Positions 36,248-53,645 of a DNA stretch of 64,000 nucleotides are shown piece after piece (position 1 is the stretch's first letter; the number at the start of each line of letters is the position of its first letter). Both the position numbers and the translations under genes were made by a program. This DNA comes from Fibrobacter sp. UWB10 (GTDB lineage Bacteria; Fibrobacterota; Fibrobacteria; Fibrobacterales; Fibrobacteraceae). The stretch spans positions 124,001-188,000 of the forward strand of contig NZ_FXUE01000004.1 of assembly GCF_900182935.1 (NCBI RefSeq), read 5' to 3'. The notes under the pieces were generated by a model that was not told the DNA's origin, did not search any database, and worked only from the letters and a program-made list of their open reading frames with translations.

Positions 36248-36276
36248 CTCCTTAAAGAACTTTTGCTCAACCAATT

Positions 36277-37641
36277 CTACTTTATCTGCGATATGGCGTA
36301 AAGCGGACATATTTGAACGTGGCGAATTGCATTTTCCGCTTCGACATCGCAGTAGTCGAATTGCCCTAAGTTTTCAAGAGAAATACGATAAGCGTTCGAA
36401 AGATTTTTCTCGCGCATCATATTCCATAGGCTCTTCATGCCCCCCTGGGTATCTGCCTTGACCTCGATAGGCATGACATGCCCACCAAGGGAATCTACAT
36501 AATCCACTTCGGACTGGCTATTCTTTTGCATCCGCGTCCAATAGAATAATTCGTGCCGCATATTTGGCGTCTTGTTCCGTAAAAGTTCAAGCCCGGCAAC
36601 CATTTCTGCCAACGAGCCCTTGTTCACAAGATCCGTGGCACTTGCCGTGAGAATTGCAGAGATAGTCTCGGAAATGTCGCCAAGGGACATATTCATTAAA
36701 CGTAATTGCAAACCGGAATCGAGAAGCAGGTATTTTTGGTAAGACGGATCCGCTTCGCTCCCCAAAGGGAGTCCGTTTGCTGCAGAACGTGTTACGGGAG
36801 TGACAATTCCCGCAAGGGTAAGCAACTGCATGGCTTCACGGATTTTTTCTGTTTTGTAACCGTTCCCTACCTTTGCATACGTGAATTTCTTTGTGATTTG
36901 CAATGCCGCACTTCGGAATGCAGACCTGAGTAAAGTAGGGTCGACATTCTTCTTGTATTTGGCAAAATCATCTTCGTACGAAATCAGAATGTCGTCTTGG
37001 ATAGATTGACACTGTAGGTAGTCCTTGCTTTCAATCCACTTGGCGACTACTTCTGGCATTCCGCCCACCATGAGGTAGGTTCTGAAAAGTTCCACGAATT
37101 TATTGTGAACCGTTTCCGGCAACGGCTTATCGCTCGATGCCTGATCGCGGACTTTTAGAAGCTTGTCAAAACCATTTGCCTGCGCGAACTCGTCAAAGGT
37201 CATGGGGTACATGAACATGGAATGGATGCGGCCCACGCCAAAAGTCGGGAGTTCCTGGAGGGCGAATTCAAGCAGTGATCCGGCGGCAATCACATGCAAG
37301 CAGGGCAAATCCTCCTTGAAAAAACGGAGCGACATGATCGCTTCGGGGCAAAGCTGAACCTCATCTAGAAAAAGGAGCGTCTGTCCAGGAATAATAGGCC
37401 TGGCACTTATAGCGGAAATTTCAGCAACGATTCTATTCACATCCAGATTTTTGTTAAAAACCTCTTTGTATTCCGGATTCTTTTCAAAATTGATGCTGAC
37501 GCAATTTTCGAAGTGCTCACCCAGGTGTTCAACAGAACTAGATTTCCCTACTTGGCGTGCTCCACGTAGCAGTAGCGGCTTGTGGTCTTTCTGCTTGGAC
37601 CATTCCAACAAGAATCTGTCAATTTTTCGCTCAAAATACAT
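36277..37641 (-). CDS. AAA_14/DUF4143 ATPase
   Basis: A 454-aa protein if started at ATG 37641 (MYFERKIDRFLLEW, typical for the family); ATG 37662 in the same frame is an alternative. Walker A is LLLRGARQVGKSS, Walker B is LLFLDEVQLCPEA, and sensor-type residues follow in VIAAGSLLEFAL. The C-terminal DUF4143 domain contains FYWTRMQKNSQSEVDYV and PIEVKA, a restriction-endonuclease-like acidic/Lys pattern. Such ATPases are widespread and often mobile; their function is poorly known. It lies downstream of a DUF1016 nuclease gene on the same strand. A well-initiated 78-codon frame overlaps its start. Confidence 0.85.
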   Translation of the reverse strand: MYFERKIDRFLLEWSKQKDHKPLLLRGARQVGKSSSVEHLGEHFENCVSINFEKNPEYKEVFNKNLDVNRIVAEISAISARPIIPGQTLLFLDEVQLCPEAIMSLRFFKEDLPCLHVIAAGSLLEFALQELPTFGVGRIHSMFMYPMTFDEFAQANGFDKLLKVRDQASSDKPLPETVHNKFVELFRTYLMVGGMPEVVAKWIESKDYLQCQSIQDDILISYEDDFAKYKKNVDPTLLRSAFRSAALQITKKFTYAKVGNGYKTEKIREAMQLLTLAGIVTPVTRSAANGLPLGSEADPSYQKYLLLDSGLQLRLMNMSLGDISETISAILTASATDLVNKGSLAEMVAGLELLRNKTPNMRHELFYWTRMQKNSQSEVDYVDSLGGHVMPIEVKADTQGGMKSLWNMMREKNLSNAYRISLENLGQFDYCDVEAENAIRHVQICPLYAISQIK

Positions 37642-37784
37642 TCTAGAACCGCCTTCGGACATTTTCCAAAGAAAAATATAGTCAATTTTGGATATTTTCC
37701 AAACAAATAATTCGCCGTTTTCGGATATTTTCCAAAGAAATAATTCAAAAAATGCGATTTTAGCGGTTTTTCATCATTCTTCAT
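37548..37784 (-). CDS. 78-aa repeat-containing reading frame overlapping the ATPase start
   Basis: ATG 37784 on the minus strand has an excellent Shine-Dalgarno (AAAGGAGG about 7 nt upstream), better than that of the ATPase. The product begins MKNDEKPLKSHFLNYFFGKY and contains three copies of an 11-residue unit (FFGKYPKTANY, LFGKYPKLTIF, FFGKCPKAVLE), encoded by a 33-bp tandem repeat. Its last 30 or so codons overlap the ATPase coding start in another frame. It could be a leader that couples translation of the ATPase, a small basic protein, or the remnant of an older N-terminus after a frameshift. Not recognised. Confidence 0.4.
   Translation of the reverse strand: MKNDEKPLKSHFLNYFFGKYPKTANYLFGKYPKLTIFFFGKCPKAVLECILSEKLTDSCWNGPSRKTTSRYCYVEHAK
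37657..37740 (-). repeat. 33-bp tandem repeat, three copies
   Basis: GGAYATTTTCCAAASAAA starts at 37657, 37690 and 37723 on the plus strand, a period of exactly 33 bp (three helical turns, or 11 codons). It lies across the start region of the ATPase gene. Confidence 0.8.
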
Positions 37785-37822
37785 CAAAAAACCTCCTTTT
37801 TTACCGCCCCTCCATGAACGCG

Positions 37823-43398: not shown

Positions 43399-44106
43399 AT
43401 GGTTTACGGCTATATACGCGTGAGTACCGACCGGCAAACGGTCGAAAATCAGCGCTTTGAAATAAGTCGGTTTGCGCAACAACAGAACCTGCAAATAGAC
43501 GGCTGGATTGAAGAAACGATCAGCGGTGCAAAGAATTACACTAAACGAGGACTCGGACGTCTTCTGAAAAAAGTGCGGAAGGGTGATTTGATTATCTGTG
43601 CCGAACTTTCACGCCTCGGACGCAGCTTGTTCATGATTATGGAAATTTTGAATATCTGCATGAACAAGGAATGCCGCGTATGGACAATTAAAGATGGTTA
43701 CCGCCTTGGAGACGACATTCAAAGTAAAGTTCTTGCGTTTGCATTTGGCCTTTCTGCTGAGATTGAGCGAAATTTGATAAGTCAGCGCACCAAAGAGGCT
43801 CTTGCTCGCAAAAAGGCGGAAGGGGTAATCCTTGGGCGCCCCAAAGGAAAATCACCTATTCCAAATCAGCAATGCGAAAAGAATCGCGATTGGATTCGCG
43901 AAATGATCTCTCGTGGCATGCCTAAGAGTGACATTGCCAAGAACCTGCACGTTGCACGCGGAACGCTTTACAGATTTCTTTCTAGTGCCGCGACAACTTC
44001 AACATCGGCCGGCAACCAATTGACAGAATGCAGCTCTGTCGTTTTCAACCATTTGGCGGCTTCATGTTCCAACAGGGTTAATTCTCCACCGATAACGGAA
44101 CAATAA
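43399..44106 (+). CDS. Serine recombinase (resolvase/invertase family)
   Basis: A 235-aa site-specific recombinase. The catalytic domain (1-140) has the nucleophile Ser9 in YIRVSTDRQ, then ELSRLGRSLFMIM and FGLSAEIERNLISQRTKEAL; the hinge carries GVILGRPKGK, and the C-terminal HTH is MPKSDIAKNLHVARGTLYRF. This is the Pin/Hin-like DNA invertase type. The normal product should end soon after residue 195; here the last 45 residues are read from the antisense of the NUDIX gene, overlapping it by 139 nt. This suggests that the original 3' end was lost by insertion or deletion. Target inversion sites were not identified. Confidence 0.88.
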   Translation: MVYGYIRVSTDRQTVENQRFEISRFAQQQNLQIDGWIEETISGAKNYTKRGLGRLLKKVRKGDLIICAELSRLGRSLFMIMEILNICMNKECRVWTIKDGYRLGDDIQSKVLAFAFGLSAEIERNLISQRTKEALARKKAEGVILGRPKGKSPIPNQQCEKNRDWIREMISRGMPKSDIAKNLHVARGTLYRFLSSAATTSTSAGNQLTECSSVVFNHLAASCSNRVNSPPITEQ

Positions 44107-44354
44107 AAGCAATGCATTGTCAAATGGAAAGTGGGGTAGTCATAGTCAACGGTGCAGAGAAAATCGCCGACGTTTACATCGATAGCGAGTTCTTCTTTCA
44201 ATTCGCGAGCGAGCGCTTGTTGCGGAGTTTCGCCAGGTTCCATCTTGCCGCCGGGAAATTCCCAACCGTCTTTGAATTCACCATAGCCTCGCTGAGTTGC
44301 GAAAATTTTGTCACCGTCTTTGATAATGCCTGCTACTACTTCGATGTGTTTCAT
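43968..44354 (-). CDS. NUDIX hydrolase (MutT-like nucleoside triphosphate pyrophosphatase)
   Basis: A 128-aa protein. The Nudix box is complete: GGKMEPGETPQQALARELKE followed by EL, fitting GX5EX7REUXEEXGU. The N-terminus MKHIEVVAGIIKDGDKIFAT is typical of the small MutT/CTP-pyrophosphohydrolase group that hydrolyses oxidised or non-canonical nucleotides. It starts 2 nt after the stop of the large helicase gene on the same strand, so the two are one operon. This NUDIX-helicase pairing is common in other bacteria. Its 3' end is overlapped by the convergent recombinase gene. Confidence 0.9.
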   Translation of the reverse strand: MKHIEVVAGIIKDGDKIFATQRGYGEFKDGWEFPGGKMEPGETPQQALARELKEELAIDVNVGDFLCTVDYDYPTFHLTMHCFYCSVIGGELTLLEHEAAKWLKTTELHSVNWLPADVEVVAALERNL

Positions 44355-44355
44355 G

Positions 44356-47256
44356 TTATCCTACTAAATAATCATAAATGTCCTGACGCACAGGTGTTTC
44401 TAGGGTATAGATAAACTTAACATAAGACTGATCTTTTCCGAGATCCTTGTTGAATTTTTTGAACTCTATAGGTTCCGACGATGTATGTAATCGTCCCAAA
44501 TAATAAAATTCCTTAGATGTTTTATCATCTTTGTTTTTTCGAACAAACAGGTCTATTTTTATACCAATTCTATCGGAATTCTGAATAGAAATGACATCTT
44601 TAGATGTTTTCTTTCGATTTACTTTAGAAATCCATTCTAAGGTCTTCTCGTCAATAAAACCGTCTTCGTAGCGAATCGATTCTTTAACGTTATCTCCTTT
44701 TTCATAATTGACAAAAATCGGAATTGTGTTTGTGTTTTTATCGTGCTTATAACCACCTATATTTTGGCTTACTTCATTTTTTTCCCAATCCAAAAGACGA
44801 CACACATCTTCGTAAGTGTATTTTTCGTAAAGGCAGAATGAAGTGTCCTTGTAGCGATGACCAAAATATTTTTTGTTGCGGAATAGACCGAACTTTACGA
44901 CTTCCGTCATTTGTCGCCGGAACTCATTATTGTCAAGTAGTTCATTGAACTTTGAGGAAATGCAAAAGTCGTTTCCATCGTTTTCGATGAATGTAACGTC
45001 AGCATAAGTGTCTTTAGCAGCGCCTGACGCAAATTGACCGGTTAAAATATTTTCAACATTCTTTCGAGTTTTTTCGTTGACGCTAATGCCGAAATCGTTT
45101 TGCATTTTACTCATCACCCGGGACATGACATTCCCGTTATTTTCACCTAACAGCTCATCAAGAATCAGAAGTTCGTGCAATCGCTTGCCATTTGCAAATT
45201 TCGTTGAGACATATTCCAGGTACTTTTCTTCGATGGTACTGAAATCAACTTTGTATTCGTCCTTCTCGACTTTCTTCAGAAATTTATGATACGAACCTAA
45301 AGATGCATTTTCAAAAATACGCATGACGTCGATTTCGCCGTATTCTTCATAATCCATTAAACTTGGAATTCTGCCCAATTTATATTTCAGGTTTTTATAG
45401 CATTCCTTGATTAGCTTCATCTCGCTGAAATTGGCGGAATCGATGGATTCATAAATCCGCTTGCGAGCAATTTCATCAAAGTGGATAGTGGAAGCTCCTT
45501 CTAGAGCTTTTACGCCTTGACGAACATATCGCCGGATGTTGTCCTTATTGTATGTTCGGTCGCCAGAAAGGGCAATAGGAATCATGTAGTTATTGCTGTA
45601 ATTCCCGATAAAATCGAGAATCATCACGAATTCTTTGTCTTCTGCCTTACGTAATCCGCGCCCTAGTTGCTGCACAAAGATGATGGGTGATTCTGTTGGG
45701 CGAAGCATCAAAATCTGATTCACTTGCGGAATGTCGATGCCTTCGTTGAAGATGTCTACCGTGAAAATGTAATCGAGACCGTTGTCGCGATTATCGTTTT
45801 CCAATTGCTTTACGGCTTGTTCTCTCGCCTCTTGGGAATCGGCTCCCGACAAAGCAATTGTTTTATATCCTCGCTTGTTGAACTTTTGGGAAAGTTCCTT
45901 TGATTCTTCTAGCGAACTACAAAAAGCAAGACCTTTTACGCGATTTCCGCTGTGACCGAAATATTCTGCTTTTTCAATAATGTAATTGACGCGCTCGTCA
46001 CAGACGAGTTTTGCGAAATCTCTCTTTTCTTTCTCTTCTCCATCGACAAAGATGTCCGTTATGCCGTAATAATGGAATGGACAAAGAAGGTTGAGCCGCA
46101 TGGCTTCTTGCAAGCGGATTTCGTGGGCGATGTTGTGATCAAAAGCGGCGTAGACGTCAAATTTGTCGCTACGGTCAGGCGAGGCTGTCATGCCAATCCA
46201 CAAATCGGGATTAAAATACGCCATCATTTTTTGATAACTTTCAGCACCTACGCGATGTGCTTCATCAACAACGATAAGCTGAAATTCGTCTTTTGCAAAA
46301 TCGTTAAAATGGGTTGCCATGGTTTGCATAGTCGCAAAGACGAAATCACGGTCTGTTTCCTGTGATGAGCCGGAGTACAAACCGAAGGTTTTTGTATCTC
46401 CAAATACGTTCTTGAAAGATTCTATGGCATTGCGCAAGATTTGTTCACGGTGAACAAGAAAAAGAGCCCGTTTAGGGTTGATTTCTCTCATTGCGAAAGC
46501 GGCTGCGTATGTTTTACCCGTTCCTGTGGCTGAAATTAGCAGCGCTTTGTGTTCGCCCATGGCGCGGATTTCGTTCAGCTTTTGAATAAATTCCAATTGC
46601 ATGGAATTTGGTTCAAGTAAAATCTGCTCAAGTGAGACCGTTTTCGATTCGTTGATGGCTGCTTCTTTTTCTAGGGCTATTTTTTGTCGCTGGAGTTCCC
46701 GACGAATTCGCTTTTGCTCGATATAAATCTGAGCGTATTCGTTAAGGACTGTATCTGAAGCAGAGAATGCGTTCGGACTATTCCAAAGTTCGTTGAAGTC
46801 GTTGATGACATTCTTGCATAAAGCTTCGTCTTCTTCAACAGAATAGCAGGTGTTCCATTCTTTATTAATAGCAAGGGCGTTCCCAGTAAGGTTCGAGCTG
46901 CCAATAGTGACGCTGACAACCCTATTTTTGAAAAAGAGATAACCCTTGGTGTGGAATCCTCGTATATTTTTGTCGCAACGAAGAATTTTTAATTCGATAT
47001 TTGAATATTTCGAAAGTGCCCTGAGGGCTGATGGCTCGGTAAATGTTAGATAATCCGTTGTGAGAATTTTTCCGGGAACATTTCTTTTTTCTAGCTCTAG
47101 CAAAGTTTGCTTTAATGGTGCCAATCCACTACGTGAAATAAACGCCACGCTAATAATGAATTTATCGCATTTTGATAATTCGTTGTCAAGAAACGCCTGC
47201 ATGGTGTTTCCAGGAGCGTTTGAAATAAATAGCGGATTTGATGAAGAAATTTCCAT
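44356..47256 (-). CDS. PLD-like nuclease, DEAD/DEAH helicase and DUF3427 protein
   Basis: A 966-aa protein. About 1-190 is a phospholipase D-like domain with the motif FHTKGYLFFKN and SVTIGSSNLTGNAL. The superfamily 2 helicase core (about 230-600) has Walker A ISATGTGKTYAAAFA, box II IVVDEAHRVG, motif III GMTASPDRSD, motif V FNEGIDIPQ and motif VI FVQQLGRGLRKAE. The last part, about 620-966, is DUF3427-like (FCLYEKYTYEDVCRLLDWEK). Proteins of this build occur in defence islands and are thought to process foreign DNA. The initiator (ATG 47256) has no good Shine-Dalgarno. It is co-transcribed with the NUDIX gene. Confidence 0.9.
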   Translation of the reverse strand: MEISSSNPLFISNAPGNTMQAFLDNELSKCDKFIISVAFISRSGLAPLKQTLLELEKRNVPGKILTTDYLTFTEPSALRALSKYSNIELKILRCDKNIRGFHTKGYLFFKNRVVSVTIGSSNLTGNALAINKEWNTCYSVEEDEALCKNVINDFNELWNSPNAFSASDTVLNEYAQIYIEQKRIRRELQRQKIALEKEAAINESKTVSLEQILLEPNSMQLEFIQKLNEIRAMGEHKALLISATGTGKTYAAAFAMREINPKRALFLVHREQILRNAIESFKNVFGDTKTFGLYSGSSQETDRDFVFATMQTMATHFNDFAKDEFQLIVVDEAHRVGAESYQKMMAYFNPDLWIGMTASPDRSDKFDVYAAFDHNIAHEIRLQEAMRLNLLCPFHYYGITDIFVDGEEKEKRDFAKLVCDERVNYIIEKAEYFGHSGNRVKGLAFCSSLEESKELSQKFNKRGYKTIALSGADSQEAREQAVKQLENDNRDNGLDYIFTVDIFNEGIDIPQVNQILMLRPTESPIIFVQQLGRGLRKAEDKEFVMILDFIGNYSNNYMIPIALSGDRTYNKDNIRRYVRQGVKALEGASTIHFDEIARKRIYESIDSANFSEMKLIKECYKNLKYKLGRIPSLMDYEEYGEIDVMRIFENASLGSYHKFLKKVEKDEYKVDFSTIEEKYLEYVSTKFANGKRLHELLILDELLGENNGNVMSRVMSKMQNDFGISVNEKTRKNVENILTGQFASGAAKDTYADVTFIENDGNDFCISSKFNELLDNNEFRRQMTEVVKFGLFRNKKYFGHRYKDTSFCLYEKYTYEDVCRLLDWEKNEVSQNIGGYKHDKNTNTIPIFVNYEKGDNVKESIRYEDGFIDEKTLEWISKVNRKKTSKDVISIQNSDRIGIKIDLFVRKNKDDKTSKEFYYLGRLHTSSEPIEFKKFNKDLGKDQSYVKFIYTLETPVRQDIYDYLVG

Positions 47257-48229: not shown

Positions 48230-48311
48230 TATTCGCGTCAAAATAGGCTGAATGTCATTTTTTTACGCTCGAATTTGATTATTTTTGTGTTCAAAGAAAA
48301 GGAACGTTTAA

Positions 48312-49439
48312 ATGGGACAGAGAAAGCCCGAATTTACTTTTATTGATTTATTTGCTGGTATTGGTGGATTTCACACGGCAATGCATTCCGTTGGTGGAAA
48401 ATGCGTTTTTGCAAGTGAATGGGATAAAAATGCTCGAATAACTTACGAAGAAAATTACAAGGCGATTGAGCCGGACCTTTTTGAAAAAGATGAGGATGGG
48501 GAATATAAGTTTTTCAATGCAGACATAAACGATGTTGAGTTAGACAAAGTTCCAGATTTTGATGTCCTTTGCGGAGGCTTCCCTTGCCAGGCCTTTTCAA
48601 TTGCCGGAAAACGCAAAGGTTTTGAAGATACTCGAGGAACACTTTTTTTTAATATCGCAGCAATTGTTAATCATAAAATAAAAATTGGAAAAAAGCCTAA
48701 GGTTCTTTTCCTTGAGAACGTTAAAGGTCTAAAAAATCATGACCATGGAAAAACGCTCGAAACGTTATTGCGTGTATTGAAAGAAGATTTGGAATATGAA
48801 GTCAAAACAATGGTCTTGAATGCCAAATATTTTGGCGTACCGCAAAATAGAGAAAGGTTGTTCTTTATTTGTTGGGATAAGGAACAGTGCGTGGCTGAAG
48901 ACTTTAAATTTCCCCTTGGCCTTGATAAGAATTTGAAATCAATATTTGAAAAAGATCAATTGCAAAATGTTATTTCAACGAAGGTTTCTGACATTCTTGA
49001 ACCGGACTCGTCTATTCCGGAAAAAATGACGATCAGCGACAAGATGTGGATTGGTCATCAATTACGCAAAGAACGTAATAGGGCGAACGGGAAAGGATTT
49101 GGGTATTCTTTGTTCAAAGAAGATGCCTCCTATTGTAGCACCATTTCCGCACGTTATTGGAAAGACGGCAGTGAAATTCTGATTGATCAGTCAAAGAAGA
49201 AAAAAAATCCTCGTAAACTAACTCCTGTTGAAGCTGGTCGTTTGCAAGGGTATAAGATTGTCGGCAATGGTTGGAAGGATCCGCAAGCGGCAAACAACCA
49301 AAACAACAAGAATAAGTTGCCAACTATGAGAATTGTGGTGTCAAATAAAGAGGCTTATCATCAATTCGGCAATAGCGTTGCTGTTCCTGTGATTAGAACC
49401 TTGGCGAAAGAAATTAAGAAACAACTATTGGAGGTGTGA
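48312..49439 (+). CDS. DNA cytosine-5 methyltransferase
   Basis: A 375-aa C5-MTase with all main motifs: I FIDLFAGIGGFHTAM, IV GGFPCQAFSIAGKRKG (catalytic Cys), VI LFLENVKGL, VIII PQNRERLFFI, X QFGNSVAVPVIRTLA, and a target-recognition region at about 230-300 (WIGHQLRKERNR). It should protect host DNA against the nuclease encoded two genes downstream. The start ATG 48312 follows AAAGGAACG. The next gene begins 1 nt after the stop. Recognition sequence is unknown; the resemblance to the LlaJI system suggests an asymmetric GACGC-like site, but this is inference. Confidence 0.92.
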   Translation: MGQRKPEFTFIDLFAGIGGFHTAMHSVGGKCVFASEWDKNARITYEENYKAIEPDLFEKDEDGEYKFFNADINDVELDKVPDFDVLCGGFPCQAFSIAGKRKGFEDTRGTLFFNIAAIVNHKIKIGKKPKVLFLENVKGLKNHDHGKTLETLLRVLKEDLEYEVKTMVLNAKYFGVPQNRERLFFICWDKEQCVAEDFKFPLGLDKNLKSIFEKDQLQNVISTKVSDILEPDSSIPEKMTISDKMWIGHQLRKERNRANGKGFGYSLFKEDASYCSTISARYWKDGSEILIDQSKKKKNPRKLTPVEAGRLQGYKIVGNGWKDPQAANNQNNKNKLPTMRIVVSNKEAYHQFGNSVAVPVIRTLAKEIKKQLLEV

Positions 49440-49440
49440 T

Positions 49441-51423
49441 ATGCCTTTAGGAAATTTAATTGAAAACGTCCAATCGTTCTTTAACAGTTCTCGACAGATG
49501 GCTAATAATCTGCCCGATGTCGTGTTGTCCGATGATTATTGTCGAGGTTTAAGGGAACTTTTACTTCGTTTTTATCCAAATGGAGTTGAGTGTAAAAAAA
49601 GTTTTTTCCAAGTAACAACGGATAGACAACTCAAGATTGTGTGTCCTAATCAATATTTGCTTTTTGCATCGATTGCGCATGACTGCGCTATAGTCCTAAA
49701 AAATTATTTTGACTTTCTTGATGGCTCAATCAAGAATGAATACGCTGCATTAGTGAACGACTTGCAAAGAGAATTTGCTGGCAGAGCAAAAAAATTTGAT
49801 GATGCGACAGAAGATATTCTTGATGAAGTTGATGCATGGTTGATTAATCATAATTGCACTGCATACATAGAACATTGCGGAGAATATCCGGAAGATCGGC
49901 ATTCGCTTTGTTTCTTCCTAGCAGCGTTTGGAGTAAAGAATTTTAAAGACGGAGATGGCTTTAGGCCAACAAAGGATTTGTTTAAGGGATATATTTTATC
50001 TATCACGCCCCTTCAAAGCGAATCTGCTGGATTTCTAGGCTATTTTGCGTATAACTTGACCACACAACCAGAGCTCTTTGATCGGTTGTCAGCGATTGTC
50101 AATCAAGACAATGCTGAGGTGATTGCAACATCTGCGCGACAAATAATTCTTTATGGGGCTCCTGGCACTGGAAAATCCTATAAAATCAACGATACTGAAA
50201 GAGGGTACGGTTTAAGAACTATAGACAAGGAGCTTAAATTCCGCACCACATTCCATCCTGATTATGATTACGCTCAATTTGTCGGTTCGTACAAACCAAT
50301 AGAAACGTCAAATACTCCTATATTAAATAAAGACGATCTATCGCGCGAATTGAGACGATTCATGGCGGAGCAGCGTCCCAATCCAGTTCATAAATTTGCA
50401 TCGTGCTATTTCAAGTCATTAAAAAGGCTATCCGCAGAAGAAAAGAGAGAACTTTTTGATGAAGCTGCAATACCAGAGTCTGTGCAAAACGCTGAAGTTC
50501 CCAAGGCTATATCTATCGCGGGATTTCTGGATAAGAGAAACAACTCATCATCCATTACATATTCATTCGTTCCGCAGGTTTTTGCAAAAGCTTATGTAAA
50601 AGCATGGTCAGAGTATCTTAAAGCGATAGATCAGGATCAAAACGCTATAGGGGAAAAGGTTTATCTGGTAATTGAAGAAATAAATCGAGGGAATTGCGCC
50701 CAGATTTTTGGCGACATATTTCAGCTACTCGATAGAGAGTGCGGCCATTCCGCATATCCGATAGATATTGACTCGGATTTTGCAAAATACATTGAAAATG
50801 AATTGAAAAATAATACAGACGTAGAGGATGCTTGGGGTAAATACAAGAATAAAATTCAGGAATGGGATAGTTCCGTGCAAGGAGAAGAACGTGCAGGCGA
50901 TGATTTTTGCAAAATCGCACTTCCTCCGAATTTCAACATTCTTGCCACGATGAACACAAGCGACCAGTCGTTGTTCCCAATGGACAGCGCGTTTAAACGC
51001 CGCTTTGACTGGGAGTATGTGCCGATCAAGTACAAAAGTGATGCGACATGTGGTGCAGAATGGAACGCCGATCAATTTGATATTTCTGTTGGAAATTCCC
51101 GCTATATGTGGCTTGACTTCTTGAAAGCAGTAAATGCAAATATCAGCAAAGTAACTAGAAGTGAAGACAAGCAGATGGGCGAGTTCTTCATAAAGCATTC
51201 TGTTGATTATAAGGAATTCCGCTCCAAAGTTCTGTTCTATCTTTGGGATTCCGTGTATAAAGATGAAGAAGGTAATGGCGACGCGAAAAAGGTGTTTCAT
51301 TTCAGGCTTGAAGGCGAAGAAGATAAAACGTTGACGTTCCAGTCGCTTTTTGAAGGGAACGATGAAACCCAGATAACGCGTATAGCAACAATTATGTCTA
51401 ATTTAGACGTTGACCCCGCATAG
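49441..51423 (+). CDS. McrB-like AAA+ motor of the LlaJI-type restriction system
   Basis: A 660-aa protein with TTGGAGG before ATG 49441. The N-terminal part (1-220) is a DNA-interacting domain of unknown type. The AAA+ module has Walker A ILYGAPGTGKSYKIN (about 240), Walker B VYLVIEEINRGNCAQIFGDI, and the McrB-type sensor ATMNTSDQSLFPMDSAFKRR followed by FDW. It resembles McrB and the LlaJI.R1 subunit, which use nucleotide hydrolysis (GTP in McrB) for translocation. It works with the nuclease subunit downstream, whose gene starts 46 nt after this stop. Confidence 0.9.
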   Translation: MPLGNLIENVQSFFNSSRQMANNLPDVVLSDDYCRGLRELLLRFYPNGVECKKSFFQVTTDRQLKIVCPNQYLLFASIAHDCAIVLKNYFDFLDGSIKNEYAALVNDLQREFAGRAKKFDDATEDILDEVDAWLINHNCTAYIEHCGEYPEDRHSLCFFLAAFGVKNFKDGDGFRPTKDLFKGYILSITPLQSESAGFLGYFAYNLTTQPELFDRLSAIVNQDNAEVIATSARQIILYGAPGTGKSYKINDTERGYGLRTIDKELKFRTTFHPDYDYAQFVGSYKPIETSNTPILNKDDLSRELRRFMAEQRPNPVHKFASCYFKSLKRLSAEEKRELFDEAAIPESVQNAEVPKAISIAGFLDKRNNSSSITYSFVPQVFAKAYVKAWSEYLKAIDQDQNAIGEKVYLVIEEINRGNCAQIFGDIFQLLDRECGHSAYPIDIDSDFAKYIENELKNNTDVEDAWGKYKNKIQEWDSSVQGEERAGDDFCKIALPPNFNILATMNTSDQSLFPMDSAFKRRFDWEYVPIKYKSDATCGAEWNADQFDISVGNSRYMWLDFLKAVNANISKVTRSEDKQMGEFFIKHSVDYKEFRSKVLFYLWDSVYKDEEGNGDAKKVFHFRLEGEEDKTLTFQSLFEGNDETQITRIATIMSNLDVDPA

Positions 51424-51468
51424 GATCCGGATCCTGCGTAATAGAACATGTCGCGATAGGCTTGTTGC

Positions 51469-53457
51469 ATGATTTTTCTATTTGAAGAGTTCCCTTACGA
51501 TCCGACTTTTTTGAAAACCGTCATCGGTTATGGTGACGGCGATTCTAAAAGTCGGAGTAAAAGCGGATTTAATACGGAAACAATAAAGGCTGGAGTAAAA
51601 ATTGATGGTGTTGGCTATTGTTTTTACAATGGTCAGCCGGTTTTTGTGCTGCCCAAGGTATTTCTTGAATACGAAAAAGATGAGCGAGGAAATGTCGTAA
51701 AGGATGAACGCGGAAATGATGTACGGAAGGCTTTTGACATACAGATAAATCGTAAGGGTGAAGACGTTTTTGGCGGACAAAACGATCTGGAAAATGCGTC
51801 TCTTGTGCCTGAACTACGCCATTTTTTCTCATCGTTGTCTCTTTGGCTTTATTCTGCTATTGACAAGTACCACAAGAAGGGAAATAAGGATAGTGGAGTT
51901 GAAACTCCTCCGCAAACAGAACATCGGCGGCTTAAAAAGAGTGACCGATATGCCACATTGCTTGATGTTATGAGCAGTATGGAACTGTTCTATAAAAAGA
52001 ATCAAAGTCTTTTTGTCTTTATCGCAAAGAACAAACATAGCGACAATCACAAAATAAACTGGCAGCGTACCGTCAACAAAACGATTCCTTTTATACAAAA
52101 CGGAGTTCCCATTTACATGAACCCCGTAAACAAAGTCAAGGTTTTTGATTTAGATGATCGTCTGTTGGTTCTTTATTTTTCCGCAATGAAATATATCCAG
52201 GATAAGTTTGGATATCAGATGCCGCAAAGCGAGTTCTATCAGCCGCTCAGAATGATTGAGATGGAACGGCTTTTGGAAAACGAACGTGGCCTGCGTGAAC
52301 TCAAGAAAATAAAGTACAAGTATTTTGAAGATAGGCTTGTTAAGCTTTATAATATCATGGAAGCCTTCTTCGCATGGGGCGCCCGATATAGCAATACGAA
52401 TAATAATGCGCAGGAATACCTGATCGCCAATTCGTTCAACAATGTGTTTGAGGCTATGATAGATGAATTGATTGGTGATCCTGAATTTGCGGATTTGAAG
52501 GATAATGAAGATGGCAAGATTATTGATCATCTTTATAGAGAAAAATCATTGATTTTCTCTTCTGGCTGCAATGATGATGTTTGGCATATAGGTGATAGTA
52601 AGTATTATCAAGATGCCAAGGACATTGAGGATACGTCCATTGCAAAGCAATATACGTATGCCAAAAATATGATACAGAATTTCTTTAGTCCTCAATACTT
52701 TAATGATGGCGAAAGTCATGATGCGAATGATGTGCACCATGGCATTCGTTATAGAGATAAATTGACTGAAGGCTATAGCGTTACTCCAAACTTCTTTATT
52801 CGTGGTTTTGTTCCAAAATACGAGGAATCTTCACAATATTCTTCTGATTACTTCATCAAGCGAGGTGATGGAACTCCTTTGATTCGTTTGGCGCAAGAGA
52901 AAGGTCAAAATAATGTTGAATCAGAAGAAGCGATGATAGAGCGGATGTGGAAAAACCGCAATCGCCATTTCAAAAATCGACTTTTTGATCGAGATACATT
53001 GCTGCTTCAGATTTATGACGTTAATTTCTTATATGTGCTCAAGGCGTTCACTTCTAAGCATTCGTCTCTTCGTGAAGAATTCAAGAATGAAGCCCGTGAT
53101 AAGTTCCGCAAGAATTTTTTGAATTTACTCAGGAAAAAGTATTATTTCTGGGCGCTTTATTTGCCAAATTGGCAAGATGATGGTTATACAGAAAACCTTG
53201 AAACGTTTGTTAATGACAATTTCCGAGCGCTTGTGGGCCGTGTGTTTCGGTCAGAAGCAACGCCAAAATGTCTAATTCTAGCATTGGAACGAGAAGTTGT
53301 TGACAATTCAGAGGAAGGCTCCGATGATGATTATCGGAAAATCAAGGGAATTGTTGATGACAATAATTGTGACGTTTTTAGCCTGTTGCCCGAAGAAATA
53401 TGGGGTGATGGGCTAATCCGACGCGATGACATGCGCGGTTGGCTAATGCCCCAATAG
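51469..53457 (+). CDS. LlaJI-like restriction endonuclease subunit
   Basis: A 662-aa protein starting MIFLFEEFPYDPTFLKTVIG; a clear Shine-Dalgarno is absent. Resemblance is to the LlaJI restriction endonuclease family (LlaJI.R2). A PD-(D/E)xK-like core is suggested by DDVWHIGDSKYYQDAKDI (about 370-385; Asp-Ser-Lys) preceded by an acidic stretch. The middle contains repeated KDERGNVVKDERGNDVRK sequence. It should act with the McrB-like motor to cut unmethylated DNA. Codon usage is AT-rich like its two neighbours, so the whole three-gene module was probably acquired together. Confidence 0.8.
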   Translation: MIFLFEEFPYDPTFLKTVIGYGDGDSKSRSKSGFNTETIKAGVKIDGVGYCFYNGQPVFVLPKVFLEYEKDERGNVVKDERGNDVRKAFDIQINRKGEDVFGGQNDLENASLVPELRHFFSSLSLWLYSAIDKYHKKGNKDSGVETPPQTEHRRLKKSDRYATLLDVMSSMELFYKKNQSLFVFIAKNKHSDNHKINWQRTVNKTIPFIQNGVPIYMNPVNKVKVFDLDDRLLVLYFSAMKYIQDKFGYQMPQSEFYQPLRMIEMERLLENERGLRELKKIKYKYFEDRLVKLYNIMEAFFAWGARYSNTNNNAQEYLIANSFNNVFEAMIDELIGDPEFADLKDNEDGKIIDHLYREKSLIFSSGCNDDVWHIGDSKYYQDAKDIEDTSIAKQYTYAKNMIQNFFSPQYFNDGESHDANDVHHGIRYRDKLTEGYSVTPNFFIRGFVPKYEESSQYSSDYFIKRGDGTPLIRLAQEKGQNNVESEEAMIERMWKNRNRHFKNRLFDRDTLLLQIYDVNFLYVLKAFTSKHSSLREEFKNEARDKFRKNFLNLLRKKYYFWALYLPNWQDDGYTENLETFVNDNFRALVGRVFRSEATPKCLILALEREVVDNSEEGSDDDYRKIKGIVDDNNCDVFSLLPEEIWGDGLIRRDDMRGWLMPQ

Positions 53458-53460
53458 ACA

Positions 53461-53645
53461 TTTTTTTAAATGCGAACGCACTGCGTTCGCATTCGCGTTA
53501 GGGATAGTGACCCCTTGGGGCGGAGACGCGCTTGCGCGGCTCCGTTGCAAGAGCGGCGCGGGGGTGCCGCAGGCGCGCACGGGGCGCCTTGCGATATAGC
53601 CCGACCCGGCGAAGGGTGACAGGGGCCAACCGAGCCGGGGAACGC
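53461..53645. repeat. GC-rich palindromic intergenic block
   Basis: A sharply GC-rich stretch of about 180 bp inside an AT-rich region. It begins with a perfect palindrome TGCGAACGCA-C-TGCGTTCGCA (53471-53491) and continues with many G/C-rich near-palindromes (GACGCGC, GCGCGCAC, GGGGCGCC). No gene is recognisable. It could be a REP-like intergenic repeat family or a structured RNA. Confidence 0.55.

What the first reader, a model, noticed from the sequence alone, without database searches (positions are those of the whole stretch)
48312..53457. LlaJI-like restriction-modification system with only one methyltransferase
Dcm-like MTase, McrB-like motor and LlaJI-like nuclease are consecutive genes. 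The lactococcal LlaJI system needs two C5-methyltransferases because its site is asymmetric; here only one is present. Either the site is different, one enzyme methylates both strands, or host DNA is hemimethylated. The first may define a new specificity.
Basis: partly seen in the sequence, partly recalled or inferred. Interest (0 to 1): 0.57.

Follow-up and report, generated by a model that had tools for sequence, protein, structure and literature searches.

The report
Mosaic restriction system with swapped reader
A gut bacterium related to Fibrobacter carries a three-gene DNA-cutting defence whose single methylase is probably sufficient because its predicted target is symmetric; its parts look like a natural graft of a site-reading module and its matching methylase onto a cutting engine whose relatives mostly carry a methylated-DNA-reading domain.

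Summary
The three genes are real, intact and adjacent: C5-methyltransferase M (48312-49439), McrB-like motor R1 (49441-51423) and PF09563 nuclease R2 (51469-53457). It is the only PF00145 C5-MTase in the 3.48-Mb genome. The puzzle dissolves: M's target-recognition domain is 63% identical to an SsoII-type MTase (CCNGG, palindromic) and 36% to Dcm, so one MTase can protect both strands. One MTase is also the usual arrangement: 38 of 51 classical LlaJI-type loci counted in the phylum have one. More interesting is the build. R1 is a mosaic: its first ~225 residues match only two classical R1 proteins (40%), which sit beside near-identical MTases (89-91%), while its motor and R2 belong to a divergent "class B" whose other R1 heads are mostly the methylcytosine-reading McrB domain (PF12102). 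A sister locus (L034) shows the same swap with another reader and MTase. The same MTase family also sits beside SNF2-MORC-HNH operons, next to a free-standing protein homologous to another R1 head. I read this as a plug-in "reader + MTase" module moved between restriction engines, here probably converting a type IV-like chassis into a modification-blocked type II system. Reader function and CCNGG are predictions.

The parts
48312..49439 (+). M: C5-cytosine methyltransferase, 375 aa, SsoII/Dcm-type target-recognition domain (TRD about residues 236-296)
   Evidence: PF00145 270 bits; TRD 63% to SsoII-type L084, 36% to E. coli Dcm L083; whole-length alignment with all C5 motifs
49441..50130 (+). 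R1 head, residues 1-230: predicted DNA site reader; no Pfam domain
   Evidence: 40%/39% over 225 aa to heads of L080/L048 only; no Pfam hit
50131..51423 (+). R1 motor: McrB-like AAA+ of class B (GAPGTGKS 50155-50178, EEINR 50674-50688, NTSD 50953-50964)
   Evidence: 68% over 424 aa to L032, 34% to classical L048/L080; motifs
51469..53457 (+). R2: class B long LlaJI/McrC-like PD-(D/E)XK nuclease, 662 aa (E328, D332, D376-S-K378)
   Evidence: PF09563 38.4 bits; 77% to L034, 72% to L023; conserved catalytic residues in the class B alignment of 22
53458..53492 (.). right edge of the acquired cassette: homology to the same-species genome resumes at 53492

Best explanation
It is a three-gene, McrBC-like type II restriction-modification system with a palindromic CCNGG-type target. 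M methylates both strands of the symmetric site, so one MTase protects the host. The N-terminal head of R1 binds the unmodified site; the McrB-like ring then pumps DNA and R2 cuts when the complex is engaged; methylation by M blocks recognition. The head and M are a matched module from classical LlaJI-type systems that has been joined, just 5' of the Walker A motif, to a motor and nuclease of class B, whose other members mostly carry the methylcytosine-reading McrB head and no adjacent MTase. Shown by sequence: gene set, intact motifs, single C5-MTase, mosaic ancestry, reader-MTase linkage. Inferred: CCNGG, that the head reads DNA, translocation and cleavage, and that the class B relatives are methyl-dependent.
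For: TRD 37 of 59 aligned positions identical to the SsoII-type MTase of pKPN2, 22 of 61 to Dcm; SsoII-like systems recognise CCNGG and methylate the inner C (PMC3695355, passages). Mosaic: window vs L048/L080 M 89-91%, head 39-40%, motor 34%, R2 19% or no hit; window vs L034 M 38% over 165 aa only, head no hit, motor 60%, R2 77%. Second case: L034 vs L062/L077 M 91%, head 42-45%, motor 33%, R2 no hit. All 3 of 3 head-family members in 167 genomes lie directly 3' of this MTase. In LlaJI, R1 is the sole specificity subunit and R2 the presumed nuclease (PMC1459862). PF12102 head in 9 of 11 class B R1 proteins without a paired MTase and 0 of 6 with one (Fisher p 0.002); E. coli McrB itself hits PF12102 above cut-off.
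Against: CCNGG sites are not clearly depleted in 356 kb of the genome (observed/expected 0.90 and 0.95, unremarkable), so there is no footprint of long-standing restriction. The same MTase also pairs with unrelated R1 heads (L102, L104), so MTase identity does not fix one reader. The head fold is unknown: AlphaFold2 gave pLDDT 40 and 68 and no structural match. The 9/11 vs 0/6 grouping was set by me after seeing the loci; with the strict rule (MTase immediately 5' of R1) it is 9 of 13 vs 0 of 4 (p about 0.03 by hand). An adjacent SauUSI-like enzyme would be expected to attack Cm5CNGG.
Confidence: 0.72

Rival explanations
1. A true LlaJI-like system with an asymmetric site, protected on one strand only (hemimethylated host) or by one MTase with two specificities.
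For: R2 is a PF09563 protein; characterised LlaJI recognises GACGC/GCGTC with two MTases (PMC1459862).
Against: The TRD is of the CCNGG palindromic type; 38 of 51 classical loci in the phylum also have one C5-MTase, so one is the norm, not a defect.
Confidence: 0.07
2. A CCWGG (Dcm-type) or CCGG palindromic site instead of CCNGG; otherwise as in the best explanation.
For: TRDs of this MTase class share the FGY...SARY.KDG.EIL core with E. coli Dcm.
Against: 63% TRD identity to the SsoII type against 36% to Dcm; CCGG-type MTases were not compared.
Confidence: 0.25
3. R1-R2 is still a modification-dependent (type IV) nuclease like its class B relatives, and M is an unrelated neighbour.
For: Most other class B R1 proteins carry PF12102.
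Against: The window R1 has no PF12102; its head family occurs only next to this MTase; M and R1 are 1 nt apart.
Confidence: 0.1
4. A non-functional chimera: recombination joined parts that no longer work together.
For: Junction inside R1, different ancestry of the two halves; no site depletion.
Against: All three frames and catalytic motifs intact; L034 shows a second intact junction of the same kind.
Confidence: 0.1

Closest known systems
LlaJI (Lactococcus lactis pNP40)
   Same: McrB-like R1 that carries the site specificity plus a PD-(D/E)XK R2 of PF09563, MTase gene in the same operon
   Different: LlaJI has two C5-MTases for an asymmetric site; here one MTase with a CCNGG-type TRD, a divergent long R2 (662 aa) and an R1 head without known domain (the B3 head reported for LlaJI R1 is cited from passages of PMC12707154)
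Classical one-MTase LlaJI-type loci L048 and L080 (Fibrobacteraceae)
   Same: MTase 89-91%, R1 head 39-40%
   Different: motor only 34% and R2 19% or no hit: a different engine
Class B McrBC-like pairs with a PF12102 head (e.g. L033)
   Same: motor and R2 of the same class
   Different: they carry the McrB-type methylcytosine-reading domain and no adjacent MTase
SsoII / Ecl18kI / Kpn2kI R-M systems
   Same: MTase 52% overall, 63% in the TRD
   Different: those have one conventional REase and an MTase with an N-terminal regulatory region, absent here
MORC-SNF2-HNH R-M operons (Iyer 2008, PMC2292703)
   Same: in Fibrobacter they use the same MTase family with a stand-alone reader-like protein
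   Different: unrelated restriction engine

Membership tests
LlaJI-type (McrBC-like type II) R-M | McrB-like AAA+ R1 with Walker A, Walker B and NxxD signature | tested here: met
   AAA_5; motifs; McrB chains in PDB hit
LlaJI-type (McrBC-like type II) R-M | R2 of PF09563 with PD-(D/E)XK residues | tested here: met
   38.4 bits vs cut-off 23.6; D376-S-K378 and E328/D332; class B and class A profiles align at E 6e-13
LlaJI sensu stricto | two C5-MTases for an asymmetric site | tested here: not met
   one PF00145 gene in the genome; TRD palindromic type. Not filed as a LlaJI isoschizomer
LlaJI-type (McrBC-like type II) R-M | R1 head binds the unmodified site | not testable with these tools
   needs binding assay
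LlaJI-type (McrBC-like type II) R-M | B3 fold of the R1 head | tested here: inconclusive
   models of low confidence, no fold match
Type IV McrBC | methylcytosine-reading head PF12102 | tested here: not met
   no PF12102 in window R1; E. coli McrB is hit
Type IV McrBC | no cognate MTase | tested here: not met
   intact MTase 1 nt upstream of R1
SsoII-type (CCNGG) MTases | TRD similarity | tested here: met
   37 of 59 positions
SsoII-type (CCNGG) MTases | N-terminal regulatory region (residues 1-71) | tested here: not met
   window M begins at the catalytic domain; feature from PMC3695355
SsoII-type (CCNGG) MTases | m5C at CCNGG | not testable with these tools
   needs methylome

The most novel reading that the evidence does not exclude
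A site reader and its matching MTase form a mobile specificity cassette that plugs into unrelated restriction engines: as the N-terminal head of classical LlaJI-type R1, as the head of a class B motor whose ancestors read methylcytosine (turning a modification-dependent chassis into a modification-blocked one), and as a free-standing protein in SNF2-MORC-HNH operons. The readers are one new, mostly helical DNA-recognition family for a CCNGG-type site.
Probability: 0.42. Interest if true: 0.78.

Novelty: new variant of a known kind. Interest (0 to 1): 0.6.

Why it matters
Whether modification-dependent (McrBC) and modification-blocked (LlaJI) restriction form an evolutionary continuum was left open in a review I saw in passages (PMC3874153). 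Here closely related class B chassis carry either a methyl-reading head without a paired MTase, or other heads with one, and two sister chassis (window, L034) carry unrelated reader-MTase pairs. That makes the conversion directly testable by head swapping, and points to uncharacterised readers that could be used to retarget McrBC-like nucleases.

Tried and rejected
Second C5-MTase elsewhere in the genome: none. Site depletion as proof of specificity: uninformative. Fold of the R1 head: AlphaFold2 on 3 sequences failed (pLDDT 40); on 10 combined sequences pLDDT 68 for the best model, 53-56 for the others; Foldseek best E 0.63, VIA best Z 3.6: no assignment. Relatives of the head outside Fibrobacteraceae: none in genome contigs beyond L085/L086, which appear to be the same two loci, none in viral contigs, one chance hit at E 1 in plasmids; the free-standing 271-aa family: none in viral contigs or plasmids. 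These pattern-limited searches do not exclude distant relatives. Empty-site comparison: in the same-species genome the left side of the cassette falls on another contig, so only the right edge was fixed. A homology between the window head and the 271-aa/L107 family is suggestive only (hhalign E 6e-4; best of 100 column shuffles 0.028). hhalign of L102/L104/L091 heads against the window head: no match. The R1 head of L146, which has a more distant MTase and another McrBC engine, did not match either.

Full report
WHAT IS THERE. The window lies in G000:C4:124001-188000 of a 3.48-Mb, 10-contig genome. Relatives returned by a head search are Fibrobacteraceae, one named Fibrobacter succinogenes. 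M (48312-49439), R1 (49441-51423) and R2 (51469-53457) are consecutive intact ORFs on one strand. Domains: M PF00145; R1 AAA_5 only; R2 PF09563 at 38.4 bits. The genome holds one PF00145 and one PF09563 gene.

WHY ONE METHYLASE IS ENOUGH. M aligns end to end with the MTase of Klebsiella plasmid pKPN2 (L084, 379 aa) and with E. coli Dcm (L083). Over window residues 236-296 it is identical to L084 at 37 of 59 positions and to Dcm at 22 of 61. That L084 is M.Kpn2kI is my inference from plasmid name, host and length; M.Kpn2kI is stated to be identical to M.SsoII, and SsoII-like systems to recognise CCNGG and methylate the inner C (PMC3695355, passages). A palindromic site needs one MTase. One MTase is also common: I fetched 84 loci (L023-L082, L090-L113) from the PF09563 hits (58 of 167 genomes positive). 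Of 64 classical (class A) R2 genes, 13 were dropped (contig edge or no R1 found); of the 51 counted, 38 have one C5-MTase within five genes upstream, 9 two, 4 none. L041 and L092 hold two R2 genes each and enter more than one class.

R1 IS A MOSAIC. R1 residues 1-225 match only the R1 heads of L048 and L080 (39-40%) among the 66 head sequences compared, and the head profile finds only these three genomes among 167. The MTases of those two loci are 89% and 91% identical to the window's. But the window motor is only 34% identical to theirs and R2 19% or no hit; instead the motor is 68% identical to L032 and R2 77% to L034. At DNA level M matches L104 best (85%, 48298-49434), homology to L048/L080 runs through the M/R1 junction to 49466, and homology to L032 starts at 50140, just 5' of Walker A. 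L034, whose R2 is the window's nearest relative in the tree (support 99), carries an unrelated head and a different MTase that match class A loci L062/L077 at 42-45% and 91%, with motor 33% and R2 no hit. So related chassis carry two different reader-MTase pairs, each found elsewhere on another chassis.

THE CHASSIS. Class B R1 proteins mostly carry PF12102 (MrcB_N): 9 of the 11 tested without an MTase paired to R1 (L024, 25, 27, 28, 33, 36, 38, 40, 43; not L026, L037), 0 of the 6 with one (window, L030, L032, L034, L035, L092) (Fisher p 0.002). I made the grouping after seeing the loci: L024, L027 and L040 do have a C5-MTase further upstream, behind two genes of which one is a ~714-733-aa protein (HATPase_c_3 shown for L024), and L035/L092 have it behind two genes and one gene. 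Under the strict rule (MTase immediately 5' of R1) the split is 9 of 13 against 0 of 4. Truncated or headless R1 (L023, L029, L039) were not tested. E. coli McrB hits PF12102 above its cut-off, and its DUF3578 head is described as the methylcytosine reader (PMC11090510, passages). In the R2 tree the MTase-paired members need 5 changes and are not clustered, so the head/MTase state has changed repeatedly.

THE MODULE IN OTHER ENGINES. The same MTase family occurs in 14 of 167 genomes at E up to 1e-60 (54-100% identity). Seven loci (L138-L143, L145) place it before a 265-279-aa protein; in L141 this is followed by an SNF2 helicase, a HATPase_c_3/MzaB-like protein and an HNH nuclease, and the other loci show the same gene sizes where the contig allows. 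That protein is homologous to the R1 head of L107 (blastp E to 1e-29; hhalign E 2e-27), a class A locus with the same MTase. All 8 of 8 clear members of this family lie directly 3' of this MTase (a ninth weak hit, G033, E 0.007 with stops, was set aside). On the MTase tree the engine labels need 6 changes, about as many as shuffled labels (mean 6.3). Another detached/fused pair: the 194-aa protein of L097 and the R1 head of L061 (39%), though their MTases fall in different clusters. Iyer 2008 (PMC2292703, passages) reports MORC-SNF2-HNH operons some of which encode a VP1/RAV DNA-binding protein, which supports reading the extra protein as the site reader; that VP1/RAV equals B3 is recalled. 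Whether the window head is itself kin to this family is only suggested: hhalign E 6e-4, collinear, best of 100 shuffles 0.028.

AGAINST. L102 and L104 pair the same MTase with other heads. CCNGG is not clearly depleted. The head has no known fold. No experiment was possible.

LITERATURE. The LlaJI paper PMC1459862 was read in parts 1-3 of 6; the others only in passages. Searches for LlaJI/McrB with Fibrobacter, for McrB specificity-domain swaps and for Fibrobacter restriction-modification listed nothing describing this mosaic; only the top entries were seen, and most subscription journals are not held.

Noticed in passing
window 44356-47256 (-): A 966-aa PLD + helicase + DUF3427 protein with SauUSI architecture (PADLOC type IV model, 672 bits) lies 1 kb from the MTase. 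SauUSI targets Sm5CNGS (PMC3874153 table), which includes the predicted Cm5CNGG product. Relatives also sit beside the MTase in L104 and L107, and DUF3427 and this MTase family co-occur in 6 of 14 genomes (expected 2.2, P 0.01): a possible self-conflict, or a different specificity.
   Followed up: partly
L171 1-6912 (same-species genome): At the position left of window 53492 the sister genome has other genes: a C5-MTase (446 aa), a 469-aa protein that looks Sau3AI/MutH-like by eye, and a MORC-like 516-aa protein (by eye): a defence exchange hot spot.
   Followed up: partly
window 43399-44106 (+) and 43968-44354 (-): A resolvase gene and a NUDIX/MutT-like gene (by eye) flank the SauUSI-like gene; this block is shared with the same-species genome at 89% while 36252-37811 is 99.7%.
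   Followed up: no
L141 5519-11923 and relatives L138-L143, L145: Operon MTase, ~271-aa reader-like protein, SNF2 helicase, MzaB-like HATPase, HNH: an apparently uncharacterised R-M system in Fibrobacter.
   Followed up: partly
L080 and L055 MTase N-termini: Two MTases of quite different sequence (L055 is only 36% identical to the window M, L080 91%) share a very similar ~30-residue N-terminal extension, absent from the 375-aa window, L104 and L107 MTases: a possible recombination seam.
   Followed up: no
own genome, 356 kb sampled: GATC is strongly under-represented (0.47 of expectation).
   Followed up: no
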